NCBI GenBank assembly: GCA_001600635.1
Contig: BCKL01000002.1
Coordinates: 561,425-625,424, forward strand
Direction: 5' to 3'
DNA length: 64,000 bases
Origin: Leucosporidium creatinivorum
Lineage: Eukaryota > Basidiomycota > Microbotryomycetes > Leucosporidiales > Leucosporidiaceae
Notes under the pieces: model-generated
What the model was told of the DNA's origin: nothing
Seen by the model: only the letters and a program-made list of their open reading frames with translations
The model's database searches: none
Part shown: in pieces, positions 16,692-42,300 of the stretch
Layout: every line of letters begins with the position of its first letter
Numbering within the stretch: the first letter of the stretch is position 1
Made by a program: the position numbers and the translations under genes

Positions 16692-17606
16692 TTCGGGAGG
16701 AAGAAGTGGAGCGTCGTAGCGGTCGAGGGGAGGTGCAGGGTGCGAAGGAGGGAGGCGAGCTTGGGCGGGGAAGGGAGACGCGACGGGGGGGACCGGCGAG
16801 CGGGCGAGGAGGGCCCTGTAGGGGCAAAGCAAGGTCAGCATGAGCTGTAGAGATGTAAACAGTCTTACACGCACCAGCAGCGAGTCGAAGAACGCGAAGG
16901 TCGAGCTTCGAGAAGAGCGAGGGAGCAGGGTGAGCGTCCTGCTTCGAGGTCGAGGACGCGTTAGATGAGCCCTGCAAGAGGATACATAGCAGCACAGACT
17001 CACCAGTAGCTTCGTATCCAGTCGCCTGTGTCGTCCTGGTCCAGCAGCGAAGTCGAAGCGGGAAACGAGGTGAGCACAGGAAAGCAAGAGGTGGGAGCGC
17101 TCGAGAGGGTGCAGCTCGGCGAGGGGGTGATATGGGTGAGAAAGCAGCAGCTCATTTCGGTTGGGCTAACAACTCACTCGCATCGTTTCTGCACCTCATC
17201 CTTCTGCCATTTTCCGTTCTCGGCGTTGGCCTGCCCTTCTCTTTCGCGAGTGCAAAAGGACGCTGACCGGCACAAAGGAGGGGAGAGAATGATAGTGCGA
17301 TCAGCTGGTATCTGCCTGCACTGTAGGCGAGCTCAGAGCGCCACTCGTCTATCACTTGAGCCCCTTCTCGGCGTTGTTCTTCGAGCTGGTTCAGCAGGTC
17401 AGCCGTTCAGAGGGAAGTCGTGCGCCGCAGATTAGGCTCGACTGGAGCGTTCGTTCGCCGTATAACCTGCCTGGTTCCTCTCATCTGATAGCTCTGCTGA
17501 CTTGACATCGACGAACTCGTGCAATTTCGCCCTCGGCGCCCGTCTAGTACACCCGTTGCCCCTCCAGCTCCTCCTCATTGTACACTCGAGCGCCCAAAGA
17601 CTCTTC
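16692..17606. other. 5' leader of F-box copy A and spacer between paralogues
   Basis: Minus-strand sequence here contains intron-like segments, for example donor GTGCGTGTAAG near 16870 to CTACAG near 16817 with a GCTGAC branch, so the copy A leader is probably spliced. No other gene is supported. Confidence 0.4.
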
Positions 17607-22800: not shown

Positions 22801-25768
22801 ATGGCGCAGGCTACCGATGAGAAAACAGGAGATGCCGTGCAGTGGAGATCTGTGCAGCGGGGAGGTCTAGCTTGTGAGTAACTCGCTCTTTCGGAGGCGG
22901 AGGAGGAGGAGAGAGGATGCAAGAGCTCGGGCTGAGACGCGCTCTTGCATCATGTAAGGTGACCCGTGCAGGCGCCGCAAGTCGCGCTGTGTACCGTCAG
23001 GTGGGTTAGCCTGTACCTCACCTGCTGCTCCCTGCTGAGCCGCTCGTTCCAGCCGATCCCGAAGGCGGCGCTTGTGGCTATTGCGAGGCTGCTGGGATCG
23101 CCTGTAGCTTTGCACCTAGACGACTAGGCCCGCCGAGAACCTACCTGGAAGCGCTCGAGCTCCGACTAGAGACTACCCAAGAGCTCCTCCGCAATCTCAG
23201 CACCTCGGCCGGCGTCGACCTCGTCTCGCTCGCCCACCACCCCTCCGAGCCAGATTCGGCGCGGAAGCTGCAGCAGGCATGCCAGGCCCTCCAGCAGACG
23301 GAAGCGGATCGGAATAATGCTCCATTCGGTCTCCCTCCGCCCCAGCAGTACTATCCACCAGACCGCCGCCTCCAGGGTGTCCTCGAAGGGGTAAGTCCCT
23401 CGTTCGGCGGCCCCTTCCGGTCGTGACGGCCCAAATTCTGACCTATCACAACACACAGCGCTTCGCCGGTAGATCAGCTGGGCCCACCCTCGCTGCGCAG
23501 GTCTTGGACGACCACTGCGAAGGAGCGACGATCCAAGTCGGGGAGGAAGTCTCGCTCGTTGAGCACTTGATCGTTCAAGAGAAGGACCAGGTCTCGAGCG
23601 CCTCTTTCGCCCTTCCACCAGTCGAGCTCGTACAGCTTCTCGTCGATGCGTACTTCTCCCAGTTCAACGAGCAAATGCCGCTCCTCCACCGGCCTTCGTT
23701 CGACCGAGCTCTGTTCGGCGGCAAGGTCGACTCGGATCCAGCGTTCAGGTCGGTCCGTACGTATTCAGATGTCTCTACTAGTTCAAGAAGCCAGGCTGAC
23801 TCGCTACATGACCCTCAGTCTTCGTCGTTCTCGCCCTCGGCGCCCGCTGGGTCAAGGATTCAAGGATTCGAGGTGACTGGTCAGCAAAAGCTCTCTACCG
23901 CGCATCGTGCTGTGAGGTACTCGTTGGAGACCATGCCTCGGCTGGCTCAACTCTGTTCGACCTGCAAGCCTCAACTCTTGCCGTCGTCTATCTGCTCGGC
24001 GCAGAAACCTCGGTCCAAGCTTGGAGCACGGCGGGTCTTGCCAGTGAGCACCTCGCTTTCTCAATCTCTAGAGAAGTCTGCTGCTGATGCTTTCGCCCCT
24101 AGTGCGCAAGGTCATCGACGTAGGCGCTCATCTGGAAACGACTGAGCGGTGGACCCAATCCGCACTGGTCGACCAGCTTCGCAAACGGGCCTTCCACCTG
24201 CTCTTCACCCTTGATCGTGAGCTTCTAGCGCTGAGCGACAACTCTTGCCATTGAGCTGACCCGGTGCGCCGTACTGCAGGCTTCTGCTCCGCCGCTCTCG
24301 GTCGACCGCTCGCCATCCAAGACTTCGATTTTGACCTGCGGCATCCGTATGTCTCTCGACCTCATCCCTCGAGCTAGACTCTAACTCTTCACACGTGCAG
24401 TATCGCCATCGACGACGACGCTCTTGATCGATGGGACAGCAAGCCGCTCGGGACGCCTTCGCCCGCGCCTTCTCAGCATCTCTCCGGGCTCTTCGAGCAC
24501 GTCTCCAAGGTGGCCGCGATTCTCGGAAGGACTCTAGACAAGCTTTATAGCGTTCAAGCGGCGTCTTTGACACCTCAGGAGATGCACCCCATCGTGCGGG
24601 AGCTCTCAGCCGAGCACGAGGCTTGTGAGTGATCTCACACTCCTCGATTCTCGATTTCAAGCTGATACCAATGCTCTTCACAGGTCTTGCTGCTATTCCC
24701 GAGCATCTCACTTGGTGCGAGCTCTTCGGCCGCTGCCTTCAGAACCGGCTGACCCCTCCGCTTTCGTAGGGAATATTCGGGCGCCGATTCGCACACGACG
24801 CTCGTCGGTCGCGCGACTCTTCGAGGATCCTCATGTGCCGCCAAGCTCTCCATGATTCGACCTCTCATCCTCCGCGTGGCCCGGACTCGCGACTCAACTC
24901 TCGACATGCTCGAGAGCGCCTTCGTTCTCGGTGGCCACGCTACTCGGACATGGAACAACATCATGCGGGTCCTTCTCGACAAGGATCGAGTACATCAATG
25001 TTTCTTCTGGATCCCAGGATCGGCTGGCTACCCCTGCGTCGTCGCCTTCCACATCCTCCGCTCGCTCCTCGTCTCGGGTCGCTACCTTCTCTCGGTCGCC
25101 GAGGGTCTTCACACCGCCATCCGTGCACTGCAGAGGCTCAAGGAGTCGTGAGTATCGATTCTCGTGTCTCGTCTGTCTGTGGTCAGCTCGGCTGACCGCC
25201 ACCTCACCTCGCCCGTAGAACGCCCGAGGCAGCTTGGTGCTTCGAGTCGTGCAAGATGCTCGCACAGCACGTCAATCGCTGGCGCGCTGCAGAGAAGTTC
25301 GACTACTGCTCCTTCATCCTCTCCCCTGATCCCGCACCCATCGCCTCCTACCTCACAATCCCACCATTCTGCTACGACGACTCCACAGCGGCCGCTGTAC
25401 ACCGTCAAACCACGGCGGACATGAACCCTCATCCTACCGAGTTGTGAGTTGGAGATTCTATTGAATGGCTCAAGTCCTAGCTGACCCTCTACCGGCTCCA
25501 CAGCATCACTCTGCCGCCTGAGCCGATGGTCGACATCTCGGCTCGGCTCGGCCACGGCGCGGTCAGCTCCTCTGCTACCTCAGAGGCGCAGAGCTCGACA
25601 CGCTCGGAGCACTACCCTTTCCGCCAGGAGGACTGGGTTGATCTCATTGGCGACAGCTTCCCCGTCTTCTCGCAGGACTTGCTGCTCGGCAACGAGCAGT
25701 TCGAGTGGCCGGACGAATGGCCTGCGCTGGACACGCAATGGCCTCAGGAGTGGGTGTCGGGACTTTGA
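22801..25768 (+). CDS. Zn(II)2Cys6 fungal-specific transcription factor
   Basis: Twelve exons (22801-22873, 22959-23000, 23053-23390, 23459-23756, 23819-24043, 24103-24216, 24280-24346, 24401-24624, 24684-24714, 24770-25147, 25219-25443, 25504-25768) join in frame to 759 residues. The binuclear cluster is split over three exons and reads CDPCRRRKSRC, then ten residues, CGYC and a final Cys six residues on (residues about 25-56), matching C-x2-C-x6-C-x(5-12)-C-x2-C-x6-C. A linker with coiled-coil potential follows (YLEALELRLETTQELLRNL). The middle homology region has FSQFNEQMPLLHRPSF, FVVLALGARWV and FCSAALGRPLAIQDFDFDLR. The C-terminus is acidic and Trp-rich. A sequence-specific nuclear regulator; its target pathway is not evident. 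Confidence 0.9.
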
Positions 25769-26329
25769 GGGTATCTAGGTATATCAGTCTAGCTTGTTGT
25801 ACAACAAAGATGTGTATTTCCTCGCAGCGTTGAGCTGAGGCGAGGTGGAGAGCGATCGCCGAGCGAAGAGCTACCTGTTCGACGTGCTGCTTGGGAGTTA
25901 GGCCAAGGTATCTCAGCTTCAGGGATTTTGAGCGAGGGTGAGAGCATAAGGGAGCGCAGCTCGATGCTACACACCCGCACTCGAGCTCCGATTGCGAGGC
26001 CAAGCACCGAGGGCGGAGGAAAATTGGTGTTGCCGAAGCGGCAAACTCGCATTCAGAGCCTTCGCCGTGATCTCTGGGCTTTTCTCGCACTCCAACCGTT
26101 CTTCTACACTCTTTCTCGTTTTTCCTTCTGCGCCATCCCACGACTTGCTCTGCTTGGACTCGAAAAGTCGACCTCGGCGAAGGAGGAGCGGCTTCGGCGA
26201 AGCGCTGGACTGCTGGCCGAGTTGGTCAGCTTTGGGAGGAGATCGGCAGCTTTTCACAGATGCTCCCCACGGCTTCTGCACGTCATGAGTAGCGCCTCAG
26301 ACCCAGCTCGAGCTTCTTTCGCCCTGCAG

Positions 26330-26860
26330 AGACCGCGGCGGAAGGCGGTCGGCGCTGGGCAGGAGAAGATGAAGGTTACTCGGCGCTGTTGGCAGAGCAA
26401 GGCGACTTCCGAATCGGTTTTCAAGACCTGCCTCCACTCAACAAGATCGGAGCGCCTCTTGGTAGAGCTCACCGGGAGTTGAAGCCGCCGTCCCTCGCTC
26501 ACTCTTTCTCCTGCAGGCCATCAAAGCATCGTTGGAGAGGCAACAGGCTCGCACAAGAAGCTCAGACAACAGATAGGACTCACAATGGCGTTTGGCTGAC
26601 AGTCGAAGGGCGAGCAGAGCAGCCAGTGGGATATGCATTCTGCGAAGGAGGGCTTCCTCATCGCCGAGGTCGAAGGACGGCTTCTGCTAAACGTTTGGGC
26701 GCGCCGGTGAGCCCCCTGTACCTCATCGGACTAACTTGGAGCTCTTCAACAACCGCGAACGAGGAAGAGAAGCAGGCTATCAAGGGGTGAGCCAGCTGCG
26801 AAGGGGGCACTTTTCGTCGTCGAGTGGTCCAGCTCGCTTGCTGATTGTACAGAGCTGTAG
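26330..26860 (+). pseudogene. Possible spliced gene remnant in the left arm with an in-frame TGA
   Basis: After a CTGCAG acceptor at 26329 a frame reads GEDEGYSALLAEQGDFRIGF, passes an intron (GTAGAG near 26461 to CTGCAG near 26518), continues as GHQSIVGEATGSHKKLRQQI, meets TGA at 26597-26599, and goes on as QWDMHSAKEGFLIAEVEG and RLLLNVWAR. A short intron and a final exon ending EEEKQAIK then EL and stop at 26858-26860 follow. Introns with GTGAGC donors and ACTAAC/CTGAT branch sites support past coding. The TGA is kept in the right arm. Not recognised as any family. It may instead be a spliced non-coding leader of the downstream gene. Confidence 0.35.
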
Positions 26861-27158
26861 GTGCTCGCTCTGTACCCTGATGGACCGCTCTAGACTCTGT
26901 AACATGTTCGACTTGAGGGAACAAAGCTGTCAGCCATCTCTTTAGCGCCGAGACTAGAAGAAGTCGAGTCGGCGCTCGTTTCTCTCTTTCCTTCCTACTT
27001 CTCCCTGCTCTCTTCAGCTCGCTCTCAGCTCTCCCAGCCCTCTCAGCGTTCTGTAGCTCTCTCACAGCCCTATCTAACACCACAGCTCTCTAGTCTACCA
27101 GACTACAGCTCTCCCGCCCTCCTCACCACCTCACATTCCTCGCTTCTCCCAGCACAAA

Positions 27159-28273
27159 ATGGCCAGCTTCTTCGCCAAGTCGCTCTGCAACCTCTTCCGC
27201 GGTGCTCGCACCTCTATCCCTACCATCACCAACTACTCGGCTGCACCTCTCTCCCGCTGGGCTGCCTTCAGCGCCGTCAGGAGCTTCCACTCGTCCAAGG
27301 TGAGTTGACAGGCTTTTTCTCTCGGCTGGAATGTAGCGCTCTTCTGTAGCTCAGCAGCTGACCTTCACCCTCCTTCTCATTCAAGCAGTACGCTAGCAGC
27401 TTCGACCCCCTCGACCTCGCCGAGAACGGCTTCTCGCCCTGCATGAGTCTCCTTGCTCAAGCCCGCGCCGAGCAGCAGCAGCAGCAGCACTCCGCTCCTC
27501 CCGCCAAGTCGTTCCACACCACCATCAAGGCCGAGCAGCAGCAGGACAGTCAGATCCAGTTTGAGGAGGAGCAGAACGAGCAGACCAGCCACCTCGCCGC
27601 ACTCGACTACAGCATCAACGAGGACGGCTACTCGGAGCAGCTCTTCAGCGACGACGACGACCGGTCCTTCCTCACCATGTCCAACTCTCCCTCGTCCGAG
27701 TCACACTACTCTTCCACCTCGCCCGACCTCGACTCGATCCCCTCGCGCACCTNAATCCCTCTCAGCNTCGCCGAGCTCGACCAAGGCGAACCTTCTTCGC
27801 CCACCATCGAGCCCATCTACCCCGCCGCTCGTCTCGCTCGTCAATACTGCACCGCGATCATCGACATCGACCTCGACGAGATCCCCTACTCCCCTTCGCC
27901 CGAGTCGGAGGCCTCCTNNGACGACTNGACCTCNGCCATCCGCCTCGTCTCCANCTCTCCCTCCTACCCTCTCTTCTCCTCACCCTCGCCCGACTCCCAC
28001 TCGGAAGGCTACACCCCCCTCCTCGGCGTCTGGCCCACCAACTCTCCCACCATCACCTCGTCCGAGCGCTGGAGCCTCACCGAAGTTGAGCGAGCCGANC
28101 GTGGCCAGGCGTCCATCATCTACGAGGAGGAGCACCTCGCTGGAGCGTCGAGGTACTATGCCCCTCATTTGGATGCGCCGAGGGCAAAGAGGGTCGGTGG
28201 ATGGGGGATGCCCGAGTGGAGTGAGTGGAGTGAGGAGCACGTAGAGGCTTGGGCGAGGGAGGAGGGCATCTGA
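27159..28273 (+). CDS. Unrecognised 341-residue protein with mitochondrial-type N-terminus, left-arm copy
   Basis: Exon 1 is 27159-27299, the intron 27300-27388 and exon 2 27389-28273. The N-terminus MASFFAKSLCNLFRGARTS and a following RSFHSSK look like a mitochondrial targeting peptide with its cleavage site. The rest is acidic and rich in Ser, Pro and Gln (for example LFSDDDDRSFLTMSNSPSSE) and ends with a short conserved-looking segment, WGMPEWSEWSEEHVEAWARE. No domain recognised. Eight N bases fall inside exon 2. The right-arm copy (36952-38066) differs mainly in a block of about 50 bases near 27831-27880 and at one codon near 28220. Copy number two within 11 kb, in inverted orientation, is its most notable property. 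Confidence 0.75.
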
Positions 28274-28692
28274 ACGGAGCATAGGGAGGGCGTGACGTGG
28301 ATTAGGGGACGAGACGAGTTGGTCAATTGGGTAGTATTGGTCCGTGTTCTGTGGTAGGAGTGTCGCTCAGTTGGTGGGGTCTCGGAGGAGGGACGAGGGG
28401 CTCGGCGATCAGTCTTTAGCGTTTCTTAAGGCCAGAGTATCATTATTAGCAGTAGCATTTAGCAGTATCATGTTGTCAACAGTAGACTGGGCATCCTTAT
28501 CACTCTTGAGCTTGTGAGAGAACACTGGCGAGCTGCTCGAACTGCTCCCTTCGGCGAGGCCTTCTCGCACGCTCGGTCGGATCGTCTGCGAAGTTGGAGC
28601 GCTCCCCCGGTTCCGAGCCTCGTCACCTTAGCTACTCGTCTCCGTCTATCCTGCGTCTCTCTTTCCATCTTCGGCTGTTCATCTCATTCTCG

Positions 28693-29008
28693 CCTCTCTT
28701 CGACCTCGCCTCTCCGCCGCCGCTGCCGCTGCTCTCCTCTCGCTCACTCGCTCGTCTGCCTCGGCGTTCTGTGGAAGCAAACGGTGTTGGACATCACTCA
28801 ATCACGACTGCTGTAAAGAAAGGGTAACCAAGGGAGGAAGGCAAGAGGGGGGAGTCGAAAGAGGTAAACTACGGGGGAAAGGGACGATGGACAAGGGGGG
28901 GAGGAGAACCAGTGTACGAAGGGAGAGCGAAGGAAGAAGGAATAACGCGAGAGAGACACTATCCACACAATGAAGAGACCTGGCCTTGGACCCGAGAAAG
29001 ACTCGAGC
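28693..29008. other. Spacer between left arm and cyclin gene
   Basis: About 315 bp with A/G-rich low-complexity sequence near 28820-28930. It probably holds the 3' flank of the cyclin gene. No gene seen. Confidence 0.35.
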
Positions 29009-31238
29009 TCAATGAGCAGCGACGCCGGCTAAGGAGGGAACTCCCCAGCGACTCCATCCCTGCGCTCCCACCGACTGCGCCTGCGCCGAGGCTCCTCCAT
29101 CGACATCCATCGCCGAGGTAGCTCCTCCGTTCCATCCCCGGTTCGATCCCAGCGATGACTGACTGCCCGAGCGAACGAGAGGGACTCCACTCCCGTGCTG
29201 CTGAGCGAGTTGTCGCTGGGGTAAACGGCGAATGGGCATGCCTCGGACTTTCCTCGCCGTCGAAGAAGTGGATGACGAGGAAGACGATTCGTCGCCCGAG
29301 GAAGAGGAGGAAGCGTCCGAGTCGACGGGAGAGGCCGTCTGTTGCTGAGTAGCGAGGAGGGGCTTGGTCGAGGCGCCGGCTGCAGCGGCGAGACGGCGCT
29401 CGTTCATCTTGATGACGAGGGCCTGACGGGAAGCGGCGATCGCTGCTGCCGAGGCTGCCGAAGTCGACGAGGAGACATCGGCCTCGGAGTGGGAGCGACC
29501 GACGGTGGAGATGGGAGGGCGAGTGGCGCGAAGGAGGTCCTCAGTAGGCTGCTCGACGGGGTAGTCGGATTGCGAGCGAGCGAGGCCGAGTCCAGAGCGG
29601 GAGCTGTTGGCAGCGGCGGCGGCGGACTCGAGGGCGGCGCCTTGAGTGGTGAGAGCGGCGAGGCGTTCGGTCCCTAGTAGTCGGCGGCGAGGAGGGGCGT
29701 TAGCAAGGGCTGAGGGAAGGGAGAAGGAGCTCGAAAGAGCGCCCTCATCTTGTTCTCAACGAGCGCCGAAGGCAACTCGTCGCGACGGTCGAACGGAAGC
29801 CTCACATTTTTGAAAGTCGTGAGCGCCGAGGTGCAGCTGGAACTTCATCATGTCGAGGAAGGCGCGCTCGTTGACGTTGATCTCGCTCACGGGCAAGCCC
29901 GAAATGCGAGCCCAAGCTCGGTTCGAGTAGTTGCGATCCTGGAGGAACTTGCTGGCGCCGATGAGGCTCGCGAGGAACATGCGCCGGCCGCAGAGGACGG
30001 GGCTGTTCTGCGTCTCCATCAAGTCGGCGAAGCGCTGCTGGCGGCCGAGCGACTGGTAGTCCTGGTGGTGGCCTCGGTCCGAGACGGGCGAGAGAGGGGG
30101 CGAAGGGTAGGAGTCGCCGAGGATGTGAGCCTCGCGCTCGGTGGCGAGTTGCTTCTCGAGGCGACAGTACTCGTCCCTGCTCGAGTCGGCGCGGGCGACA
30201 ATCTCGCGAATCTCGCGGCGCGACTTGTGGAGGTAGTAGAGGGCGAGTTGGAGGGTCGAGCACGAGGTGCGCGAGCGGCGGAGGACCTCCTTGACGAACC
30301 AGTGGAGGGGGAGGACGGCGCCGTCGGGTGACATGGCGGTGGCGGCGGTGCACTCGGGCGAGGTGGGACCCCAGATGGACTCGATAGCGAGGACCGAGGC
30401 GCCTGAGAAGACAAACTCGCCGTCAGCGATGCGCACTACTGCACCTCATCAGCATCAACTCACCGACGAGACCTGCGACGAAGCGATCCTTGTTGAGGAC
30501 CTCGCCTCCGACCTTGATCCCAGGGTCGGTGCTGCTCCTCTCCACTCCTTTTCCGGCGCCGAGCTGGCGCCTCAACTCTTCTCCACGCGCCCTCAACTCG
30601 ATCTCCGAGCCGAACTGCGCAGTTCCATCCTGTACACCACTAGCAGCCCTGAGCTCGGCGATACTCCTCGAAAGGTGAACGGGAGCAGTCGTCGAGCGAA
30701 GGTTGACGGGTCGACCGGCGGCAGCGGTCGACGAGTCGTGGTGGAAGGCGTGGTGCTGGGGAGTAGCGGCGGGAGTAGGGTGGAAGTTGGTCTGCACGCC
30801 AGCGAGACGTTGGTTGTGGTAGTCGAATGACTCGGAGGAAGTGGGAGTGTCGACGAAGCCGAGTCCGACAGTGGCGGCTTGCGAGGAGGAAAGGTTGGCG
30901 GGAGGGGGGAGATAGCTCCACGCCTGAGAGAATTCGAGGTCGGAAAGGGTGTTGGAGAGCGCCGCCGAGGAAGGGATGGGAAGGTGGCGGTGCTCTCGGT
31001 CGAGCGCAGGGGTGGCGACCGATTGAAGCCATCGTTGGAGCGAGACGGGCTCGACGGGAGCGGCGGTAGGTGGTGAGGTGGACCTAGGACGTTTGGCGTC
31101 GGGTCCTAGGGCGTCGGAGGAGGAGGAGCGCTGGCGAGAGAGTGCCGCCACATAGGCGACGGCCTCCTCGGTGGCGGAAAGGGCGGAAGGAGCTTGACCA
31201 TGGCCGAGCGAGGGAGGGGAGGGGTAAGGGTAGTTCAT
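29009..31238 (-). CDS. Cyclin of the Pcl5/Pho80 (PREG1-like) family
   Basis: Exons 31238-30464, 30402-29806 and 29673-29009 give 678 residues. The start MNYPYPSPPSLGHGQ lies just inside an exon that follows a clean 5'-leader intron. The cyclin core spans about residues 245-400: EVLNKDRFVAGLVG, ASVLAIESIWGP, LPLHWFVKEVLRRSRTS, LQLALYYLHKSR, CGRRMFLASLIGASKFLQD, NRAWARISGLPVSEIN and FLDMMKFQLHL. These match the Pho80/Pcl group that binds Pho85-type cyclin-dependent kinases. Long Ser/Pro-rich flanks surround the core, as in Pcl5/Clg1-type cyclins. Likely role: regulating a Pho85 kinase in nutrient or amino-acid signalling; which branch is inference. It lies inside the block flanked by the inverted arms. 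Confidence 0.82.
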
Positions 31239-32614
31239 GATTGAGTGTTGATGATGGCGGGGATCAGGCCAGCAGGAGGAAGAGGGATGTGCGAGGTTTT
31301 GACTCTGCGAGATGAGCGCCGAGTCAGTCGTCAACAACGGGGAATGACTAGTTCGGCGGACTCACTGTAGTAGACTAGTTCAAGCAACACGAAGCTGGAA
31401 GCCTGCCTAGTAATAACGTCCTACAGATGAAAGTCTTGAATCGGATGGAAGCGAGACTCGAGTACAGGTGAAGACGGCGGCAGACCGAGTGGCAAGCGCG
31501 GTGCTGGGAAGAAGTCGCGGGTGGAAAGGGTTTTGATGGTGGCGGAGTAGACGATGACCGGAGTAGGAGGACCTTGATACGAGTGTGCAAGCGGGTAGGC
31601 TTGCTTTTGGTGTGGAAGACTTGGAATGGTGTGGGATTGACGAGGGGGGCGGTTGAAGGCGGGGAAGGGTGCTTGGGAAGGGATGAGCGGCGGTTGGTTC
31701 GGAGTAGGTGCAGAGCGTAGTTTGTAGTCGTGTAGGAGTAAAGGCTGGATTTAAGCCTTGACAGCGAGCGACGAGTGGACGATAGGGAAGGCCATGTCGG
31801 CGACGAAGAGGGTGCGTGGGTTTGAAGGAGAAGAGGGTCTCCGCTGCTGTAGCCGTGTAGGAAGCCTTGCGCCTGACTAGTAAATAATAAGGGTAGGTGA
31901 GCGATGACTCCTTCCAGGCTGTAGTCAAGCGAGCAAAGCCGAGACTGACCTTGGCGAAACGAGCAAGTGGCGAGCGCGTGGAGCTGCTGTAGGGCATCGA
32001 GTCAGCTCTCCGGAGCAGCGGGAAGTGATGCAAAGGATGCACTGTATCAGCACGAACACTCACCTGCTGTAGCGCACGGCCCGGAGCTGTTTTAAGAGGG
32101 AGCTTGGACGAAGAGGCGAAGGGAGAAGAGCGGCGACGCCGAAGCTCTTCAAGGGGCGAGGGAGATCCCTTCGCGAAAGTGTGTGTGTGCTGAAGTTCTT
32201 GTTGTAATTCTGTGGTGTGGCTGCTGATGTGGTGAGGTGAGTTGTTGGTGGAAGAGAGCAAGTCCGTGACTCAGATCTCGACTTGGAGCGGTCGTGGCTC
32301 GTCTTCGCCTCAGAGTCAAGCCTTAGCTACTAGTCAAAATCGACCAGCTCGCCTGTAGAGCGGGTGCGGAGGGGACGCCAGGCGTCTCCGAAATGCGAGC
32401 AATGCGAGAGGGTGTAGTAATGTAGCTCCGACCCCTCGAAATCGCCTTGCGCCGAAGGACAAGCTCGGCCGAGATAGGAGCTGAAGCGACATGAGATGTA
32501 CGCTAGTCGTGTTCAGAGGTTGAGAAAAGCATGTAGCCGTCCAACGAAGCATCGCAAACGCCGCGCAAGTCCCCCGTCGATGTCGAAAGCTCGGTCAAGG
32601 TTCGGGCACCATCT
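31239..32614 (-). other. Long, probably spliced 5' leader of the cyclin gene and CNS1 3' flank
   Basis: About 1 kb upstream of the cyclin start carries successive intron-like segments on the minus strand: GTGAGTCC near 31371 to CTCGCAG near 31308, GTGAGTGTT near 32064 to CTACAG near 31990, and GTCAGTCTCG near 31950 to TTACTAG near 31880. Exons between them contain upstream ATGs, including one at 32261 that opens a long low-complexity frame. This looks like a regulated leader and not a separate gene. The part beyond 32300 is the tail of CNS1. Confidence 0.45.
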
Positions 32615-34125
32615 CTACAACAACGCCGCCGCCCCCTGCTTGACCTCCTCCTTCCACGTCTGAATCCACTTCTCCCCGGCCTCATCCTTACTGACTCCCA
32701 CCATCTCCAAGCTCCACCCCTCCTGCAACACCCACCCATCCCCATCCTTGCCCGCCGCAGCGAGGACCTTCTCCAACGTCAACTTCTGACCGACCTTGAG
32801 AACCTTGCCCTTCTTGGTAGCGATGTACAGCTGCGTCGTCGAGGGATCATGCTCCATTGAGAGGAGGGCGTCCCCGAAGGTGGCGGAGGTGTGGAAGCCG
32901 AGGCAGAGGTCGCGGGTTGGGGGAGTAGCGAGAGGGAGGAGAAGGAAGACGGGGAGGATGAGGGGGATGGTGGTAGAGGGGGCTTCCCAAGTGATGAAGG
33001 GGGTGGCTGAGCTGGTAGGAGGGATCAGAGGGAGCGTGGGGGAGGAGGAAGGGAGGATCGAGTCGGGGTCGAAGTGAGGAGGAGGGACGTCGATGGGACA
33101 ATTGCAGAAGAGAGGTTTGGCGGCGGTGATCTTGGGGAGGAGAGCTCCTCGAGACTATAGGAGCAGAGGCGTCAGCGAGGTCCGAACGAAACGAAAGCGC
33201 CAGAACTCACCTTCAACGCCTGCTGAATGGCCCAATCCCCCTCCTTCTTCCTCCTCTCCTTCTCCTTCTTCTCCGCCTCCCTCCTCTTCTTGGCCTCCAC
33301 CTTCTTCTCCACCTCATCCCGCCACTTCTTGCCCACATCCTTGTCCTCTTCGCCTGCGTCAACCATCTCGGTCTCCAACATCCTCAACCTCAGTAGCGAA
33401 TCCTGCGCCTCGTCCAGTTTCTCCAGGCCCAAGAGCGCGCGAGCGGAACGAAGAAGAGCCTTCTGGGTGGTCTTGTTCCAGGAGGCGGGTGCGGGTTCGG
33501 GATAGAAGACTTGGGGAGCCGAGAGGACGAGGGAAATGTCCCGAAGGCAGGTGCCGAGGTTGCCTGTTAAGTCAGGAGAGTTAGCTAGGATGTACGCGAG
33601 GAAGCTCAGAGTATGTAGGGCTGACCCAGCTCGAGATTAGCGGCTGCACGATTGCACCACAGCGTCCGACGATCCTCCACCGGCAGGTCCTTTCCCACCT
33701 CATCCAGCGCTCGCGAGTAGAAGCCAATAGCATCCTTGAACTTGCGCTTGACAAACAGCTCGTTCCCCTGCTCCTTGAAGCCAGCGGCAATCTCTGTAGG
33801 TCATCCCGAAAGCTCAAGTCAGCTCTTCGCGCGAAAGAAGGGGGTAGCAAAAGGCTCAGCCCGTGACGCACCTGCTGGTTCACCCTCATACACCAGAGCT
33901 TGTAGAGCAGCGAGAGTATCTCCCTGTGCTTCATCTTCGGCCCCTTGCACTTTGGTCGTCCCGCCGAGCTCTTCGGGGAGCGACTTCATAAAGAGGGGGA
34001 CGGATCCCCATCCTGCGAAGGGGTCAGCCTGACCGGCTGAGGACCTGTAGGAGAGTATGTGAGTTCGGTAAAGGTGTAGAGGTACAAACTGCTTACTCTG
34101 GTGGACGTTCAGGTGCAAGAGACAT
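32615..34125 (-). CDS. CNS1: Hsp70/Hsp90 co-chaperone, CNS1/TTC4 family
   Basis: Exons 34125-34097, 34044-33872, 33793-33626, 33563-33211 and 33154-32615 give 420 residues. The N-terminus reads WGSVPLFMKSLPEE, the TTC4/Cns1 start signature. TPR helices follow: FKEQGNELFVKRKFKDAIGF, YSRALDEVG, LWCNRAAANLELG, NLGTCLRDISLVL and KALFRSARALLGLEKLDEA. Next is a charged helix (KKVEAKKRREAEKKEKERRK) and the C-terminal wheel domain, with MEHDPSTTQLYIATKKGKVL and VGQKLTLEKVLAAA. Cns1 is an essential cytosolic TPR co-chaperone that helps Hsp90 fold elongation factor 2. It shares a 204 bp upstream region with the PPR gene. Confidence 0.92.
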
Positions 34126-34329
34126 GGTACGAGAGATTAGCGAAAGGACAAGGAGCGCGTCGCGAGGAAAGACGCTTCTTGCGCTCTGGCTGTTCATTGC
34201 TACCTCGACTTGTCTGTGAGTTGTCCCTCTGCAGCTTTGTAGGAAGCTGACATCCTGATCCTCTATCCTACAGCTCGCGACTGGCTCTCTCCGACGTCGA
34301 ATCGCTGGAATCGAAGGCTGAGGGGGGAG

Positions 34330-36408
34330 ATGCTCTCAAGGCGTTTACCGGGGTGCACCTGCTCCTACTCGACTACAGCTCCCCTGGCACGTCGAGTGTA
34401 CCCTGTACCTTCCACCTCAGCTCGCACCTTGGACGAGCCCGAGCCATTCGAAGGCGGTCGCTCCTTCGACAGTTTGCTCCCCGACGACCGCCAGCTCCCT
34501 CTCGCTCGGCCGCCGACAAAGAAGTCGGGCAAACGGATAAATCGTCGACTACAGCATTCCAGGCAGATCCGGAACCTCCCTACCACCCCGTCATTACAAC
34601 CTCCCAACTCGCCCCCTCGCGCCGCTCCGACTCCCCTCCCCTCCAAGATCTCACCTTACCTCCCTCTCGTCACTCGCGAGCGTTCTTACCTCCTTGCCAA
34701 CCTCCGCGCCTGTCTCTACACCTCCCCCAATGAACAAGCGCCGCCTCCCAACCCCGATCAAACCTGGCGGAGCCTCGCCGCCGTGCTGCAGTACCCCGAC
34801 GTCCTCCCCGACCTCCCTCCCACTCAACACTCGACCACCACCCGCTCCTCCGACCCCGAAGACCCCGAAGCCCCCCTCGAACCGCGCAGCAAGATCCAAA
34901 TCTCCCTCCTCGAACTTCGGCGATGTTTTACCGTCTTCGCCTCCGAGAGGCCTCGCACTCGCAACGGCCTGCAACGGTTACTCGTCGTCGCGGAGCTCAT
35001 GGCGCTCAAGTCCGAGGCGGGCAAAGCGCAGATTGCTGCGGCCAACTTGAGCGGAGGAGGAGGGATGGAAGGAGGAAGGGACGAACCGCTCAAGGAGCTG
35101 CGAGGGGGCGGCGAGAACCTGAGGGAGAAGGACTGGCGCATCCTCATGCTCTTCGCTGGTGCCAACTTGAGGGCGCCACGAGCGACGGTGGACGTCCAGA
35201 GCTCGTTCTCCCTCTTCTTCCACCTCCAACGAGTCGAGGAGGACAAGCGGAGCTTTGCTGGCGGTCCGGGGCAGGGCGAGTTTGTCGCCGAGAAGGAGAC
35301 GTACAACGCTCTGCTGCATGTTGCATGTCGAGCGAGGGCATGGGAGGTAGTCGAACATGTGGAGCAGAGGATGAGAGCGCTAGGAGTGGAGGGCGACGTG
35401 CATACGGTCGGCGTCAAGCTGCAGAAGGAGCATCACCGAGGCGCCCACATCGAGACGGTTTGGAACGTCTTCGAGCAGGGGCTACAGCGGTGGTCGAAGG
35501 AAGGAGGGACGGATCGGTTATGGAACATGATACTGTGGGTGTACGCTGAGCGAGGGATGCTCGATGAGGCGATGGGGCTCTACCGGGCGATGAGGGCCGG
35601 TCGACCGGTCAACCTCCTCCACCATCGACCACCAGAGCACGGCTACTACCACCACTCGCCGCACCCCTCCTCCTACTCCTACCGACCCGTCAACATCCCT
35701 CCACCCGACCTAGCGACCTACACCGCCCTTATCCAAGCCTTCACCTACCGCGGCGACCTCCGCTCCGCCCTCTCCATCATGCACGACATGGTCTCTCCTC
35801 CTCCCTATCACCCACATCTCACCAAGAAGACGCCCACCATCCACGTTTTCACCTGCCTCTTCCGCGGTTTCGCGACCCACGGCCTCCTCCCCCCTTCCTC
35901 CGGCCTCCCCGTTTCTCCCCTCCTCCTTCGCGGACCCACACAACGCGCCAACGCCCGAGCAAACCGCGAGAGCTCATTCGCTGCTCTCACCAAGCTCGGC
36001 AACTCCTCCGCCGCCGACAGTCGAGGGATCGGTCTCTCCTCCTCGTCGGCATCACTCTGGACCCTCCCCTCCCTCCAAGTCCTCTTCTCCTCCTTCCTAG
36101 CCCTCGCGCCTCCGCCTCCCTCCTCCATCAGTTCTTCCACTCCCTTTCTCGGGAAACGCCTTTCGCCCCAATCCAACGACCTCTTCTGGCTCCTCACCGC
36201 CTTCGAGGTCCTCACCGGCGATGATTCGAGGGTCGTGCTCAGTGTCTGGGACAGCGTGGTCAATAAGTTTGGAAGGGGGGAGAGATTCAAGGGTGTGAGA
36301 GGCGTTGGGTGGACGGGTTGGAAGTTGGACAAGAGGGTGGTGGGGATGTTGGAGAGGCATCGGCGCAGGGTGGTTGAGTGGGAGGAAGAGGATGCGGCGT
36401 TGGATTAG
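34330..36408 (+). CDS. Pentatricopeptide-repeat (PPR) protein, probably mitochondrial
   Basis: Single coding exon of 692 residues. A 5'-leader intron (34216-34273) precedes it. The N-terminus MLSRRLPGCTCSYSTTAPLA is Arg/Ser-rich as in mitochondrial presequences. PPR-like helical pairs are visible at about residues 320-360 (TYNALLHVACRARAWEVVEH), about 400-430 (LWNMILWVYAERGMLDEAMG), about 460-495 (TYTALIQAFTYRGDLRSALS) and just beyond (HVFTCLFRGFATHG). PPR proteins bind specific organellar RNAs and act in their maturation or translation; the RNA target is unknown. The last third is Pro/Ser-rich. The stop is about 120 bp before the right inverted arm. Confidence 0.8.
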   Translation: MLSRRLPGCTCSYSTTAPLARRVYPVPSTSARTLDEPEPFEGGRSFDSLLPDDRQLPLARPPTKKSGKRINRRLQHSRQIRNLPTTPSLQPPNSPPRAAPTPLPSKISPYLPLVTRERSYLLANLRACLYTSPNEQAPPPNPDQTWRSLAAVLQYPDVLPDLPPTQHSTTTRSSDPEDPEAPLEPRSKIQISLLELRRCFTVFASERPRTRNGLQRLLVVAELMALKSEAGKAQIAAANLSGGGGMEGGRDEPLKELRGGGENLREKDWRILMLFAGANLRAPRATVDVQSSFSLFFHLQRVEEDKRSFAGGPGQGEFVAEKETYNALLHVACRARAWEVVEHVEQRMRALGVEGDVHTVGVKLQKEHHRGAHIETVWNVFEQGLQRWSKEGGTDRLWNMILWVYAERGMLDEAMGLYRAMRAGRPVNLLHHRPPEHGYYHHSPHPSSYSYRPVNIPPPDLATYTALIQAFTYRGDLRSALSIMHDMVSPPPYHPHLTKKTPTIHVFTCLFRGFATHGLLPPSSGLPVSPLLLRGPTQRANARANRESSFAALTKLGNSSAADSRGIGLSSSSASLWTLPSLQVLFSSFLALAPPPPSSISSSTPFLGKRLSPQSNDLFWLLTAFEVLTGDDSRVVLSVWDSVVNKFGRGERFKGVRGVGWTGWKLDKRVVGMLERHRRRVVEWEEEDAALD

Positions 36409-36951
36409 AGTTGCTAAGGATGCAAGATCGGTACATAGATATCACACTTCGCCTCGAGTCGAGCGAGCCTCCCGCTGGTAAGAGAGGCTGAACAGCCAGC
36501 CGACCTTGGGTGACGAGAGGGGGAGGGCATCGAAGCTGAGATGGAGAGCCGAAGATGGCAAGAGCGACACAGAGTAGGAGGTGAAGAGTAGCTGCGGTGA
36601 CGAGCCTCGGAAGCGTCAAAGACCTTCAGCTTCGCAGACGAGCCGACCGAGCGTGCCAGAAGGCCTCGCCGAAAGGAGCAGATCGAACAGCTCGCCAAAC
36701 TTCTCTCACAAGCTCAAGAGTGATAAGGATGCCGAGTCTACTGTTGACAACATGATACTGCTAACTGCTACTGCTAATAATGATACTCTGGCCTTAAGAA
36801 ACGCTAAAAACTGATCGCTGAGCCCCGCCTCCGTCCTCCGAGACCCCACCCCGACTGACCGAGAGTCCTACCACAGAGCACGGACCAATACTACCCGATC
36901 GACCAACTCGTCTCGTCCCCTAGCCCACGTCACGCCCTCCCTATGCCCCGT

Positions 36952-38066
36952 TCAGATGCCCTCCTCCCTCGCCCAAGCCTCTACGTGCTCCTCACTCCAC
37001 TCACCCCACTCGGGCATCCCCCATCCACCGACCCTCTTTGCCCTCGGCGCATCCAAATGAGGGGCATAGTACCTCGACGCTCCAGCGAGGTGCTCCTCCT
37101 CGTAGATGATGGACGCCTGGCCACGNTCGGCTCGCTCAACTTCGGTGAGGCTCCAGCGCTCGGACGAGGTGATGGTGGGAGAGTTGGTGGGCCAGACGCC
37201 GAGGAGGGGGGTGTAGCCTTCCGAGTGGGAGTCGGGCGAGGGTGAGGAGAAGAGAGGGTAGGAGGGAGAGNTGGAGACGAGGCGGATGGCNGAGGTCNAG
37301 TCGTCNNAGGAGGCCTCCGACTCGGGCGAAGGGGAGTAGGGGATCTCCTCGAGGTCGACGTCCAGAATGGGAGTGGAGGACTGATGAGCGGGGCGAGCGG
37401 CGGGGTAGATGGGCTCGATGGTGGGCGAAGAAGGTTCGCCTTGGTCGAGCTCGGCGANGCTGAGAGGGATTNAGGTGCGCGAGGGGATCGAGTCGAGGTC
37501 GGGCGAGGTGGAAGAGTAGTGTGACTCGGACGAGGGAGAGTTGGACATGGTGAGGAAGGACCGGTCGTCGTCGTCGCTGAAGAGCTGCTCCGAGTAGCCG
37601 TCCTCGTTGATGCTGTAGTCGAGTGCGGCGAGGTGGCTGGTCTGCTCGTTCTGCTCCTCCTCAAACTGGATCTGACTGTCCTGCTGCTGCTCGGCCTTGA
37701 TGGTGGTGTGGAACGACTTGGCGGGAGGAGCGGAGTGCTGCTGCTGCTGCTGCTCGGCGCGGGCTTGAGCAAGGAGACTCATGCAGGGCGAGAAGCCGTT
37801 CTCGGCGAGGTCGAGGGGGTCGAAGCTGCTAGCGTACTGCTTGAATGAGAAGGAGGGTGAAGGTCAGCTGCTGAGCTACAGAAGAGCGCTACATTCCAGC
37901 CGAGAGAAAAAGCCTGTCAACTCACCTTGGACGAGTGGAAGCTCCTGACGGCGCTGAAGGCAGCCCAGCGGGAGAGAGGTGCAGCCGAGTAGTTGGTGAT
38001 GGTAGGGATAGAGGTGCGAGCACCGCGGAAGAGGTTGCAGAGCGACTTGGCGAAGAAGCTGGCCAT
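36952..38066 (-). CDS. Unrecognised 341-residue protein with mitochondrial-type N-terminus, right-arm copy
   Basis: Exons 38066-37926 and 37836-36952 mirror the left-arm copy exactly in length and intron position. The protein is the same except for a block near the middle, where this copy reads RPAHQSSTPILDVDLEEI and the left copy reads RLARQYCTAIIDIDLDEI, and a Gly for Ser in PEWGEWSEEH. N bases sit at the mirror positions of those in the left copy. Both copies are open throughout, so both could be functional. Function not recognised; mitochondrial location inferred from the presequence-like start. Confidence 0.75.
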
Positions 38067-38364
38067 TTTGTGCTGGGAGAAGCGAGGAATGTGAGGTGGT
38101 GAGGAGGGCGGGAGAGCTGTAGTCTGGTAGACTAGAGAGCTGTGGTGTTAGATAGGGCTGTGAGAGAGCTACAGAACGCTGAGAGGGCTGGGAGAGCTGA
38201 GAGCGAGCTGAAGAGAGCAGGGAGAAGTAGGAAGGAAAGAGAGAAACGAGCGCCGACTCGACTTCTTCTAGTCTCGGCGCTAAAGAGATGGCTGACAGCT
38301 TTGTTCCCTCAAGTCGAACATGTTACAGAGTCTAGAGCGGTCCATCAGGGTACAGAGCGAGCAC

Positions 38365-38746
38365 CTACAGCTCTGTACAATCAGCAAGCGAGCTGGACCA
38401 CTCGACGACGAAAAGTGCCCCCTTCGCAGCTGGCTCACCCCTTGATAGCCTGCTTCTCTTCCTCGTTCGCGGTTGTTGAAGAGCTCCAAGTTAGTCCGAT
38501 GAGGTACAGGGGGCTCACCGGCGCGCCCAAACGTTTAGCAGAAGCCGTCCTTCGACCTCGGCGATGAGGAAGCCCTCCTTCGCAGAATGCATATCCCACT
38601 GGCTGCTCTGCTCGCCCTTCGACTGTCAGCCAAACGCCATTGTGAGTCCTATCTGTTGTCTGAGCTTCTTGTGCGAGCCTGTTGCCTCTCCAACGATGCT
38701 TTGATGGCCTGCAGGAGAAGGAGTGAGCGAGGGACGGCGGCTTCAA
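38365..38746 (-). pseudogene. Right-arm copy of the possible gene remnant
   Basis: Mirror of the left-arm remnant, with the same intron-like segments and the same in-frame TGA (mirror of 26597-26599, about 38626-38628). Upstream of about 38746 the two arms diverge strongly, so the 5' exon of the left remnant is not preserved here in readable form. Coding status uncertain, as for the left copy. Confidence 0.3.
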
Positions 38747-39390
38747 CTTCTGGTGTGCTCTACCAAGATGCGCTTCGACCTTGTGACCTGGAGCAAGGTC
38801 CCCAAAATCGTCCGGAAGTCGCCTCGTTCAGCCAACGGCGCCGGGCGACCCGCAGCTCCTCCTCGCCATTGCCGACTGCCTTCCCCCGCGGTCTCTTTGC
38901 AGGGCGAAGTCAGCTTGAGATTGTTCAAGGCCGTACTGCTGCTGTACAGAAGCCGTGGAGAACACCTTTGAAAAGCTTATGATCTCCTCCCACAGCTGAC
39001 CGCGTCAGCCAGCAGTCCAGCGCATCGCCGAAGCCGCTCTTCCTCCGCCGAGGTCGAAGTCCGAGTAGCGCAGGTCGTGGGATGGCGTAGAAGGAGAAAC
39101 GAGAAAGAGTGTAGAAGAACGACTGAACTGCGAGAAAAGCTCAGAAATCACGGCGAAGGCTCTGAACGCGAGCATGCCTCTTAGGCAACTCGAATTTTCC
39201 TTCGCCTCGGCGGCCCCTTGCTTCGCTGCACTCCAGCGGCAAGAGCCTATGTACGAATGCGATTGCGAGAGATAGAACAAAGCGATAAAACGTCCATATA
39301 CCGAGGCATGTCCTCCTTTTCCACTCCTCACGCCCTCCTCCCGTTGCGGCTCCCCTCCGAAACCTCGCGGCTCCTCCTCGTCCGAGCACA

Positions 39391-42300
39391 CTACTTGCGG
39401 CTCCTAGAGCAGAGACGCATGAGACGGAAGACTGTCCAGCGAAGAGCGGGTCAGCTTAAGCACGCTGGAGAGGGCAGAAATGAAGATGGACGACTTACCA
39501 TACTCGCCGAAGAGGTACCAGGTCATTCCGCTGATCCTGACGACACTGAGGCCAAAGGTGACCCAGAGAATCGCTGAGAAGTAGGTCGACTGAATCTTGC
39601 TTCCGAGGCGAGTGATGGTGAGGGCTGTGGGACGAAGCGAAGAGGACAGCGTCAGCGACTGTGAAGCGAGCGTGAGGGAAGAGGGAGATGCAGCGCACCG
39701 AGAATGGCGTTCATGAGCAGCCACACGCAGATGAAGCGGGTCCTGAACGTCTTGTTGCGATCGTCCATCGTCGGCTCCTCAATCTCCTCGGTCTCGTCGA
39801 AGGCCTCAACGGCACGCAGGACAGTGGCCTTGAAGTTCAAGTCGATGTCTGTAGTTCGGGGAGAGAGCCAAGGGTCAGCTCAATGCTCTTCGACCCGGAC
39901 TCGGGTGATCGCCCTCCTCCCATTTCCGTCGCCTCATCTTCGACTCGTCCTGAGTCGACTCAATCGACTCGCCCCATCTTTCAGGGGAAGTCACAGCAGA
40001 AAGGAAGACTCACCCTCCTGCACCTTCTCCTGTACCTCGACGACTCCCTCCTTGCCGTCCTTCTTGGACGTCGCTGAAGGAAGCTGTTCGACCTTGTCGG
40101 ATCCCTTGGTGCCCCAGCTGCGCGGTGGGGGACGTTTAGCAAGAGGAACGAGCTAAAGACGTGAGAGGCGAGCTTACGATACGTCATGCAGATTACAAAA
40201 CGCATACACGTTCTGCAAGGCGAGAGGGCTGGTCAGCTCGACGACCGTGAACGGGCGGAAGAGTGTGCTGCGTACCAAGATGTTGGTGAACGAGGGAGCG
40301 ATGAGAAGGAACTGAGGCATCGAGGTGATCAGGTGCAGCGGGTCGAGGTACATGAGGGACTGTGGTACAGCAACGGGTCAGCAATGCTTCGACGTCCGCT
40401 CCAGGCACTCTCCTGGCCCACTTACCGACAAGATGTAGACACCGAAGGTACCAGCGATACCAGCGAAGATGGGTCCGAAGGTGCTGCCGAGGAAGACGCT
40501 GATAGACGAGCCATCCGACGCTGCCAGCAGCGAACCGATCGGCTGGGCGACAAGACGAGATGGAAGGTCAGCGGCAAGCTCTCGCTGCTCCCCAACACCA
40601 TGGGCCTCGAAAAAAGACTCACGCAGAAGCTGTGGGAGACGAAGGTGAGAATCAGCGAGAGCCGACACGAGCGCCGACAGGAGCGCTGATGGGAGAGCTT
40701 ACGCCTTGATGGTGAGGACGACAGTGTTGAAGATCAGGTAGAGGGAGAAGAAGGCGTAGACGCAGATTGAAACGGTGTAGGTGACCTTCTCTGCCTTCGG
40801 TCGGTTTCCCAGCGCCAGGATAATTTGAAGACCGAGGAAGACGAGGTCTGCGCCGACGAGGGCGAGGTCAGGACGGCTCGGGACGAAAGAGCGAGGACAA
40901 TGGAAGCTCACAGATAACCTTGAATAACCAGTTGACGGTTCCGAGCCAGTCGAAGCTCGATCCATCGTCGTCTTGGAGGAAAGAGCCGGCCCAGCAAGCG
41001 ACGGTGGCAGGGTCACTTCCAGCGATGTCGTTGGGACTCCTGAGCGAGGAAGCGACGATGGTGATAATGACTGTTGATGAAGAGGGGTCAGCGGATGCGC
41101 CCACAGGGAAAGGAAGCGAGGGACGAACTAGAGAAGGTGAGGTAGTAGTTGGCGACGGCGAACCAGCTCATGATGAGGTTGATGGTGTTGTAGATCGCCT
41201 GAATGTGGAGAAAGAAGAGGCGAACGATGCCGTGGTCACTCTTGTAGTAGCGGCCAAAGTGGGCGAGCGAGTAGACTCCAGCGGCGAAGGATCCGTTGAG
41301 CCAACGACGACGCTGCGAGATGAGCTCGGAGGCGGCTTCGGGAACGTCGCTGCGAGTGCAGGGATCAGTAATCGCGTCGAACGGATTGACACGAGCGGCT
41401 CACGTCTCTCCCTTGGCGGCTGCGAGAGTGCGAAGCGAGAGAACGAGGGTCAGCGGGAGGAACGCGAGGGAGGGGCGTCGTCAATGCTCACGCTTCACGT
41501 ATCCAAGTACCCAGCGCTCGTTCGCTTTGGCCACCAGCTCGAAGCAGAGGATACGATCCTCGGCCTATTGAGCGAGAGCGTCAGCTGGAGAAGCGATGCG
41601 AGAGGCTTCCGGCTCGATGTACCAAGAACATGTTCTTCGTCCAGATGGTCATGCCGTCGGTTCCCTTGGGTCCAAGACGAGCAGCAAGTGTTTGGTCACC
41701 TGTAGACGAGCGTCGTCAGCGAGGGGAAGCGAAGCGAGCGATCGCCGAGGAAGGGCTCACCATGGAAGTACTGCGCCAGCGGTCGGCCTTGGATAGCGGC
41801 GTAGCGGTAGCAGGAGAAAGCACCGGGAAGCACAGAGACGTAGCCGAAGGCACTCTCCGTAGGCTTGTCGAGGACGTCTGGGCGAGAGAAGTGAGGTCAG
41901 CGAAAGGCGGCGATCGTCCAAGCGGGCTCGCTCCTCACTGCTCATCTGCAGGGGCCAAAGAATCAGCGAGAGCTCAGCTTCGGATATCGAGATCTGAGCG
42001 CACCTTGTACTCGAAGTTCTGAGCAGCGACGAGGGGGTTCAGAAGCTTGCGACCTCCCCTTCCGAGCATGGCCTGTTTTGGGGATCAGAGTCGAGTCAGC
42101 TTCTCTCCGAATTCAAAGGCGGTCTATGGTACTCACGTGGATCTCTCCAGCAGCTCCACCGAGATGCTTGTCGTGATGGAAAGCCTCCCACCTGCGCCGA
42201 AGACTGTCAGCTCGGCGGTCGCTAGCCCATTCGTCTCGTCCGGCAGCTCGGACTCACAAGTAGTAGATCGAGCGCTTTCCAGGCTTCGTCCCGGCATCAA

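What the first reader, a model, noticed from the sequence alone, without database searches (positions are those of the whole stretch)
26000..39230. Inverted duplication of 2.7 kb flanking a 7.8 kb three-gene block
Two arms in opposite orientation match with constant coordinate sum 65225 over about 2 kb and enclose cyclin, CNS1 and PPR genes. Arms this similar at this spacing can recombine, so the block could exist in both orientations in the population and the arms could exchange sequence by gene conversion. The identity profile (near-identical centre, diverged edges) fits an older duplication kept similar in the middle by conversion. No transposon hallmarks are visible. I did not recognise mating-type genes inside, but the design resembles invertible or conversion-prone loci in other fungi.
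Basis: partly seen in the sequence, partly recalled or inferred. Interest (0 to 1): 0.8.

Follow-up and report, generated by a model that had tools for sequence, protein, structure and literature searches.

The report
Inverted gene pairs kept alike
Two mirror-image copies of an unknown fungal gene look as if they copy sequence from each other, and they turn out to be one of several such sets scattered over this fungus's chromosomes, all sharing one type of promoter.

Summary
Inverted arms lie at 26007-28686(+) and 36537-39210(-), 94% identical overall with a 1,326-column identical core (1,247 without ambiguous bases), and flank cyclin, CNS1/TTC4 and PPR genes. Each arm is one complete two-exon gene with promoter, encoding a 341-aa protein without Pfam match; the two genes point inward.

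The pair is not unique. Its promoter marks a multicopy family. Similar copies recur as neighbours on one contig, mostly inverted: a second pair on C2, ten copies on C7, three on C3, two on C14, two on C1. Sets on different contigs share the promoter far more than the protein. In five C7 copies the closest relative changes along the sequence (126:0:0 informative sites for one pairing inside a 1.25-kb tract, 11:2:18 outside). This supports ectopic gene conversion.

It is not a mating-type locus: STE3 is on C25, the homeodomain gene on C24. Inversion of the block is possible but untested. Mirrored single Ns and gaps indicate that the assembly pooled reads of these copies, so exact core identity is uncertain. 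Protein function is unknown. Verdict: real; a new variant of a known kind (conversion-homogenised inverted gene pairs), notable for involving one gene family on several contigs.

The parts
26007..28686 (+). left arm: complete gene unit (upstream region, two exons, 3' region)
36537..39210 (-). right arm, same unit inverted
26506..27831 (+). identical core of the left arm (1,326 columns, two N/N positions included), -653 to +673 relative to the ATG
37394..38719 (-). identical core of the right arm
27832..27877 (+). 46-bp island with 14 differences between arms inside exon 2 (mirror 37348-37393); single Ns lie on both sides
26620..27060 (+). promoter/5' block shared at 82-84% with a second inverted pair on the same contig (mirror in right arm 38165-38605)
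26986..27012 (+). 27-bp pyrimidine-rich element that marks the family (30 genome hits, reversed-pattern control 0)
38213..38239 (-). same 27-bp element in the right arm
27159..27299 (+). predicted exon 1, 47 aa (GT at 27300); mirror 37926-38066 on the minus strand
   Evidence: read, open frame; splice sites inferred
27389..28273 (+). predicted exon 2, 294 aa plus stop, rich in Ser and acidic residues by eye, no Pfam match
36952..37836 (-). predicted exon 2 of the right copy
29756..31361 (-). cyclin gene of the enclosed block (exons approximate)
   Evidence: PF08613
32615..33800 (-). CNS1/TTC4-like gene of the enclosed block (wheel exon over the cut-off, TPR exon below it)
   Evidence: PF18972; PF00515 below cut-off
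34330..36408 (+). PPR protein gene of the enclosed block

Best explanation
The two arms are paralogous copies of one gene, facing each other across a block of ordinary genes. They belong to a multicopy family with a conserved promoter. Copies on the same contig repair from one another by ectopic (non-allelic) gene conversion, which here keeps the promoter, intron and most of the coding sequence nearly identical while the edges have drifted to about 81% and 88%. Copies on different contigs exchange rarely or not at all, so their coding regions are hardly recognisable as related. A crossover between inverted copies only inverts the block, between direct copies it deletes it; that would explain why the closest pairs are mostly inverted. 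Shown: the arms, the family, the mosaic similarity among C7 copies. Inferred: conversion as the process, and the survivorship reason for orientation. Not shown: expression, protein function, actual block inversion.
For: The identical core covers promoter, intron and synonymous sites, while the edges differ at 97 of 500 and 47 of 400 columns; even placement of the differences gave no such run in 2,000 draws. A second inverted pair on C2, 704081-706479(+)/732089-734394(-), is 92-94% identical and shares 82-84% of the promoter block with this pair; its longest identical run, 253 bases, lies in the promoter. On C7, 262944-267291(+)/317864-322199(-) is 90.9% over 4,375 columns, and ten copies form two coding subfamilies; all but 498k share an upstream region of about 2.6 kb. 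Among five of these ten, columns 2750-4000 (-1064 to +174 from the ATG) give 126:0:0 sites for (262k,318k|368k,431k), columns 4500-5150 give 11:2:18. 368k and 431k share an identical run of 1,030 bases (N/N counted as same) but are 79-84% alike in columns 4250-4750. C14 pair 92%, inverted, only two matches in the genome. C3 three copies, + - +, 92% to the first. C1 inverted pair identical over 293 bp before a gap. dN/dS 0.35-0.68 in 13 usable exon-2 comparisons.
Against: Mirrored single Ns (8 of 8 in this pair; also in C7 262k/318k and 368k/431k) and N gaps of 475 and 708 bases in single arms indicate that reads of the copies were pooled, so a 98-99% tract could be printed as 100%. No related genome is held, so the age of the duplication is unknown. 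The identical tract does not always sit at the promoter: in C7 262k/318k the longest run lies 1,335 to 557 bases upstream of the ATG. Topology outside the C7 tract is weak or mixed (2:5:7, 6:6:4, 3:0:3, 14:6:5, 11:2:18). Orientation bias is modest: 8 of 9 closest pairs inverted (hand count, one-sided binomial 0.02); the C3 entry is marginal, since its first copy matches an inverted and a direct copy almost equally (1434 and 1413 bits), and without it 7 of 8 (0.035); with 180k and 806k added 9 of 11 (0.03). C9 motif hits lie in direct orientation (homology unchecked). Three of ten C7 copies (498k, 589k, 764k) have broken frames by eye. Protein relation between subfamilies is weak.
Confidence: 0.74

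Rival explanations
1. Inversion-breakpoint duplication: staggered breaks at the ends of an inverted block left one copy of the breakpoint gene at each end; similarity is then mainly age.
For: Copies sit at both ends of a block of ordinary genes here, and the closest pairs elsewhere are mostly inverted. Duplications at inversion breakpoints are discussed for Drosophila (listing only, e.g. PMC5080602).
Against: It does not explain an identical core with diverged edges or the change of closest relative along C7 copies, nor why breaks should fall on one gene family repeatedly. It can explain the origin and still need conversion afterwards.
Confidence: 0.12
2. Assembly artefact: one gene copy was written twice, or the core is one consensus pasted into two different loci.
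For: Mirrored single Ns in the arms and N gaps in one arm of other pairs.
Against: The edges of this pair differ by about 19% and 12% and the sequence outside is unrelated, so two loci exist. Collapse itself needs long near-identical stretches (reasoning; the assembler is unknown). Similar pairs are read on C1, C2, C3, C7 and C14.
Confidence: 0.08
3. A switchable locus: the block flips by recombination between the arms and this changes expression of genes at its edges, as in mating-type inversion systems.
For: Inverted 2.7-kb arms with a 1.3-kb identical core 7.85 kb apart could recombine.
Against: STE3 is on C25 and the homeodomain gene on C24. The block holds ordinary genes. Each arm carries its own promoter and whole gene, so flipping would not exchange expressed and silent partners (reasoning).
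Confidence: 0.04
4. The arms are copies of a mobile element that happen to lie in opposite orientation.
For: Dispersed family; the C7 copies carry a repeat of about 530 bp also found at 26 and 27 places on other contigs or elsewhere on C2, lower bounds since only 40 candidates were scored in each.
Against: No Pfam match in the arm protein, no obvious terminal repeats or target-site duplications at the arm ends (by eye), edges fade rather than stop sharply, and coding sequence matches stayed on one contig in the six DNA searches made with family members.
Confidence: 0.05

Closest known systems
Maintained inverted repeats of paralogous gene pairs in Caenorhabditis (PMC1803023; abstract, first part of Results and Discussion read)
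   Same: Homologous genes in opposite orientation whose arms are far more alike than their age suggests; gene conversion is the first mechanism the authors discuss.
   Different: In the examples read the spacers are short (126 and 414 bp); here they are 7.85 kb to over 50 kb, and in this window hold ordinary genes. One promoter family supplies the arms on several contigs. Cross-species proof of age exists there, not here.
Palindromes of mammalian sex chromosomes (e.g. PMC3723533, abstract start seen in listing)
   Same: Large inverted arms homogenised by arm-to-arm conversion.
   Different: Arms over 99.9% alike on the human Y; here 90-94% overall with a near-identical part, on several contigs.
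wtf genes of Schizosaccharomyces (PMC9562144, passages seen)
   Same: Multicopy, fast-diverging fungal family with a conserved promoter feature, an intron after exon 1, and non-allelic gene conversion.
   Different: No sequence relation tested or shown, drive untested here, no poison and antidote products demonstrated.
Mating-type inversion in Ogataea/Komagataella yeasts (listing only; mechanism recalled)
   Same: Inverted repeats flanking a block that could flip.
   Different: No mating-type genes here; each arm carries an entire gene.

Membership tests
Conversion-homogenised inverted gene pair | Two paralogous genes in inverted orientation on one chromosome | tested here: met
Conversion-homogenised inverted gene pair | Identity concentrated in a tract that includes neutral sites, flanked by diverged homologous sequence | tested here: met
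   reservation: mirrored Ns
Conversion-homogenised inverted gene pair | Phylogenetic discordance along the copies | tested here: met
   on five of ten C7 copies; not possible for this two-copy pair itself
Conversion-homogenised inverted gene pair | Pair older than its arm identity (orthologue comparison) | not testable with these tools
   no related genome held
Mating-type locus (P/R or HD) | STE3 receptor or homeodomain genes at the locus | tested here: not met
   STE3 on C25, Homeobox_KN on C24
Invertible switch | Both orientations of the block occur | not testable with these tools
   needs reads or isolates
wtf-like driver family | Biased transmission, poison and antidote products | not testable with these tools
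   no expression or cross data
Transposable element | Encoded transposition enzyme | tested here: not met
   0 Pfam families for the arm protein at E up to 1
Transposable element | Terminal repeats and target-site duplication | tested here: inconclusive
   arm ends inspected by eye only

The most novel reading that the evidence does not exclude
A lineage-specific, fast-evolving selfish gene family (working like wtf-type drivers): one conserved promoter, a short basic N-terminal exon, a hypervariable and probably disordered body, each chromosome carrying its own subfamily as inverted copies that rewrite each other by conversion and survive because a crossover between inverted copies cannot delete the genes between them.
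Probability: 0.08. Interest if true: 0.85.

Novelty: new variant of a known kind. Interest (0 to 1): 0.55.

Why it matters
It offers a natural set of gene copies in inverted and direct orientation, at different distances, in one fungal genome and with one type of promoter. That makes it possible to measure how orientation and distance set ectopic conversion and which pairs survive, and it points to a family whose regulation is conserved while its protein is not.

Tried and rejected
Mating-type reading: STE3 and Homeobox_KN searches put those genes on other contigs. Identity of the arm protein: Pfam gave nothing; an own-genome protein search found the two exons of the two arms plus two weak hits (E 0.02 and 0.09). 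Rfam on window, L019, L047, L015: no match. tRNA scan of the window: none. Tandem repeats in 24000-41000: only a low-complexity stretch at 33241-33315. GC of core against edges: 0.586 against 0.548-0.593, so no GC-biased conversion signal. A looser promoter pattern gave 61 hits against 1 for the reversed control, but many of the 3-mismatch hits may be unrelated pyrimidine-rich starts, so I do not count them as family. One dN/dS value (second C2 pair) is withdrawn: it rested on frames after an N gap; before the gap 92 codons show no difference. An earlier idea that all tracts centre on the promoter was dropped. Literature: five answered searches listed no description of this family, but I saw only titles and abstract starts there, and the species is not known. 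No structure prediction was run. No disorder or targeting predictor was run.
Full report
What was checked. The window is C2:561425-625424 of a 27.7-Mb, 63-contig genome. The inverted arms are real: 26007-28686 and 36537-39210, 94% over 2,684 columns, spacer 7,850 nt. Identity is uneven: 403 of 500 columns at the left edge, a run of 1,326 identical columns (1,247 if ambiguous bases break the run), an island of 46 bp with 14 differences, then 353 of 400 columns over 28262-28659, and nothing alignable outside. Spreading 162 differences evenly never gave a run above 191 in 2,000 draws.

Anatomy. Each arm is a complete gene. Exon 1 (27159-27299, 47 aa), a GT-AG intron (27300-27388) and exon 2 (27389-28273, 294 aa) are read from the sequence; the right copy mirrors them. 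The protein has a basic start that looks like a mitochondrial presequence and a body rich in Ser and acidic residues (both by eye, no predictor run), with no Pfam match. Both genes point toward the enclosed block, which holds a cyclin (PF08613), a CNS1/TTC4 gene (PF18972) and a PPR gene.

A family, not a single pair. Searching the genome with the arm returned six places: the two arms, a second inverted pair on C2 that shares only the promoter block at 82-84%, and two short matches on C7. The second C2 pair is 704081-706479(+)/732089-734394(-), 92-94% identical, with a different protein and a 475-N gap in one arm. The C7 matches opened a larger set: 262944-267291(+)/317864-322199(-), 90.9% over 4,375 columns, and further copies at 180k(+), 368k(-), 431k(+), 498k(+, gene end only), 589k(+), 701k(-), 764k(+), 806k(-). 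They split into two coding subfamilies; all but 498k share about 2.6 kb of upstream and promoter sequence at 78% or more. Further C7 places (221k, 344k, 521k, 959k) match only upstream parts. These searches scored only 40 of 59 and 40 of 56 candidates, so counts are lower bounds.

Promoter signature. Aligning 13 of the 14 copies then held (the C2 733k copy was dropped because my start pattern missed it) showed a conserved pyrimidine-rich element before the ATG. A 27-base pattern drawn from it, with up to 3 mismatches, gave 30 hits against 0 for the reversed pattern. Fourteen are the C2 and C7 copies, which match by construction; 16 lie on C1, C3, C6, C8, C9, C13, C14, C22, C25, C40 and C44. 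Of these 16 I read 6. The C14 copies are 92% alike and inverted, with no third match. The C3 copies are 92% alike and inverted, with a third at 969779(+), so + - +; I saw no clear long frame in them. The C1 copies are inverted and identical over 293 bp, after which one has a 708-N gap. The other 10 were not read.

Conversion. In five C7 copies (180k, 262k, 318k, 368k, 431k; the lower-identity 498k and 589k and the three copies of the other subfamily were left out) the nearest relative changes along the alignment. For 262k, 318k, 368k, 431k, columns 2750-4000 give 126:0:0 informative sites for (262k,318k|368k,431k). Other stretches give 2:5:7, 6:6:4, 3:0:3, 14:6:5 and, in 4500-5150, 11:2:18 in favour of (262k,431k|318k,368k). 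368k and 431k share an identical run of 1,030 bases (1,499 columns if an N against a letter is let pass) and are 79-84% alike in columns 4250-4750. A single tree does not easily produce this; conversion between neighbouring copies does.

Where the tracts lie. Relative to the ATG the longest identical runs start and extend as follows: this pair -653, 1,326 bases; second C2 pair -363, 253 bases; C7 368k/431k -665, 1,030 bases; C7 262k/318k -1335, 778 bases. Three of four cover promoter sequence; the fourth lies wholly upstream of it. Start of repair near promoters is therefore only a suggestion.

Constraint. dN/dS of exon 2 is 0.35-0.68 in 13 comparisons (ten in C7 subfamily A, one each in C7 subfamily B, this pair and C14). 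A fourteenth, for the second C2 pair, was computed across an N gap and is withdrawn; before the gap 92 codons are identical. The C14 value may include a few misaligned codons at its end, and this pair's value rests on 15 differences. Copies 498k, 589k and 764k were left out because their frames are broken by eye. Frames are thus under mild constraint. Protein relation between subfamilies is weak: A-B N-termini E 0.003, B-C2b C-termini E 0.038, both seen in one query direction only; best shuffled control 0.17; no other pair of real proteins matched at E below 5.

Orientation. Nine closest pairs: C1, two on C2, C3 (892k/930k), C14, C7 262k/318k, 368k/431k and 701k/764k are inverted; C7 498k/589k is direct. 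That is 8 of 9 (one-sided binomial 0.02, by hand). The C3 entry is marginal: 892k matches the inverted copy with 1434 bits and the direct one with 1413; without it 7 of 8 (0.035). Adding 180k (nearest 262k, direct) and 806k (nearest 764k, inverted) gives 9 of 11 (0.03). C9 hits at 569k and 615k are direct by motif only and not counted. C7 copies are not independent. The bias is suggestive only. A survivorship reason is plausible: crossovers between direct copies delete the genes between them, between inverted copies they invert them.

Assembly caution. All 8 Ns of the left arm have mirror Ns in the right arm. C7 262k/318k and 368k/431k share mirrored Ns, and gaps of 475 and 708 N lie in single arms. 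The assembler probably pooled reads of near-identical copies. The printed 100% may be 98-100% (reasoning), but pooling needs near-identity, so the contrast with edges that differ by 12-19% stands.

What it is not. Not a mating-type locus, no known RNA family in the window or the loci scanned, no transposition enzyme in the arm gene. Whether the block flips is open.

Known parallels. Caenorhabditis inverted gene pairs (PMC1803023: abstract, first part of Results and Discussion read) are the nearest match in principle, with short spacers. The wtf family (PMC9562144, passages) shares a conserved promoter feature and non-allelic conversion but no shown sequence relation. Sex-chromosome palindromes and yeast mating-type inversion were seen in listings only.

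Noticed in passing
window 6000-8900: Dispersed repeat with pieces on C5, C6 and C52 (92-98%), carrying 10 single Ns at 6339-8542; perhaps a mobile element, type not identified.
   Followed up: partly
window 15212-17109 and 17618-19548; C2:558814-560724 just left of the window: Cluster of related sequences, 67-77% alike, two in direct orientation and inverted relatives left of the window; no Pfam match for the two frames scanned.
   Followed up: partly
L019:2303-2856 (C7 arms): A repeat of about 530 bp found at 26 and 27 places outside C7, 77-89% identical, lower bounds; among them an inverted pair on C3 at 98982(+)/109278(-).
   Followed up: partly
window, 10 sites: The 9-mer CTTCGCCGA occurs 10 times against 1.57 expected (0 of 100 shuffles reach 10); two of the sites lie in the left arm at 26174 and 26194.
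   Followed up: no
window 55549-55827 and 57248-57542: Short direct repeat, 70% identical.
   Followed up: no
L015:848-1000 and L015:3786-3938 (C2:700847-700999, 703785-703937): A 153-bp inverted repeat, 100% identical, just outside the second C2 pair.
   Followed up: no
C7 subfamily A copies (e.g. L019, exon 2): Exon 2 starts with an ATG directly at the predicted splice acceptor, in frame with exon 1, which would allow a shorter product from a second start; not seen at the exon 2 start of the window pair or the second C2 pair.
   Followed up: no
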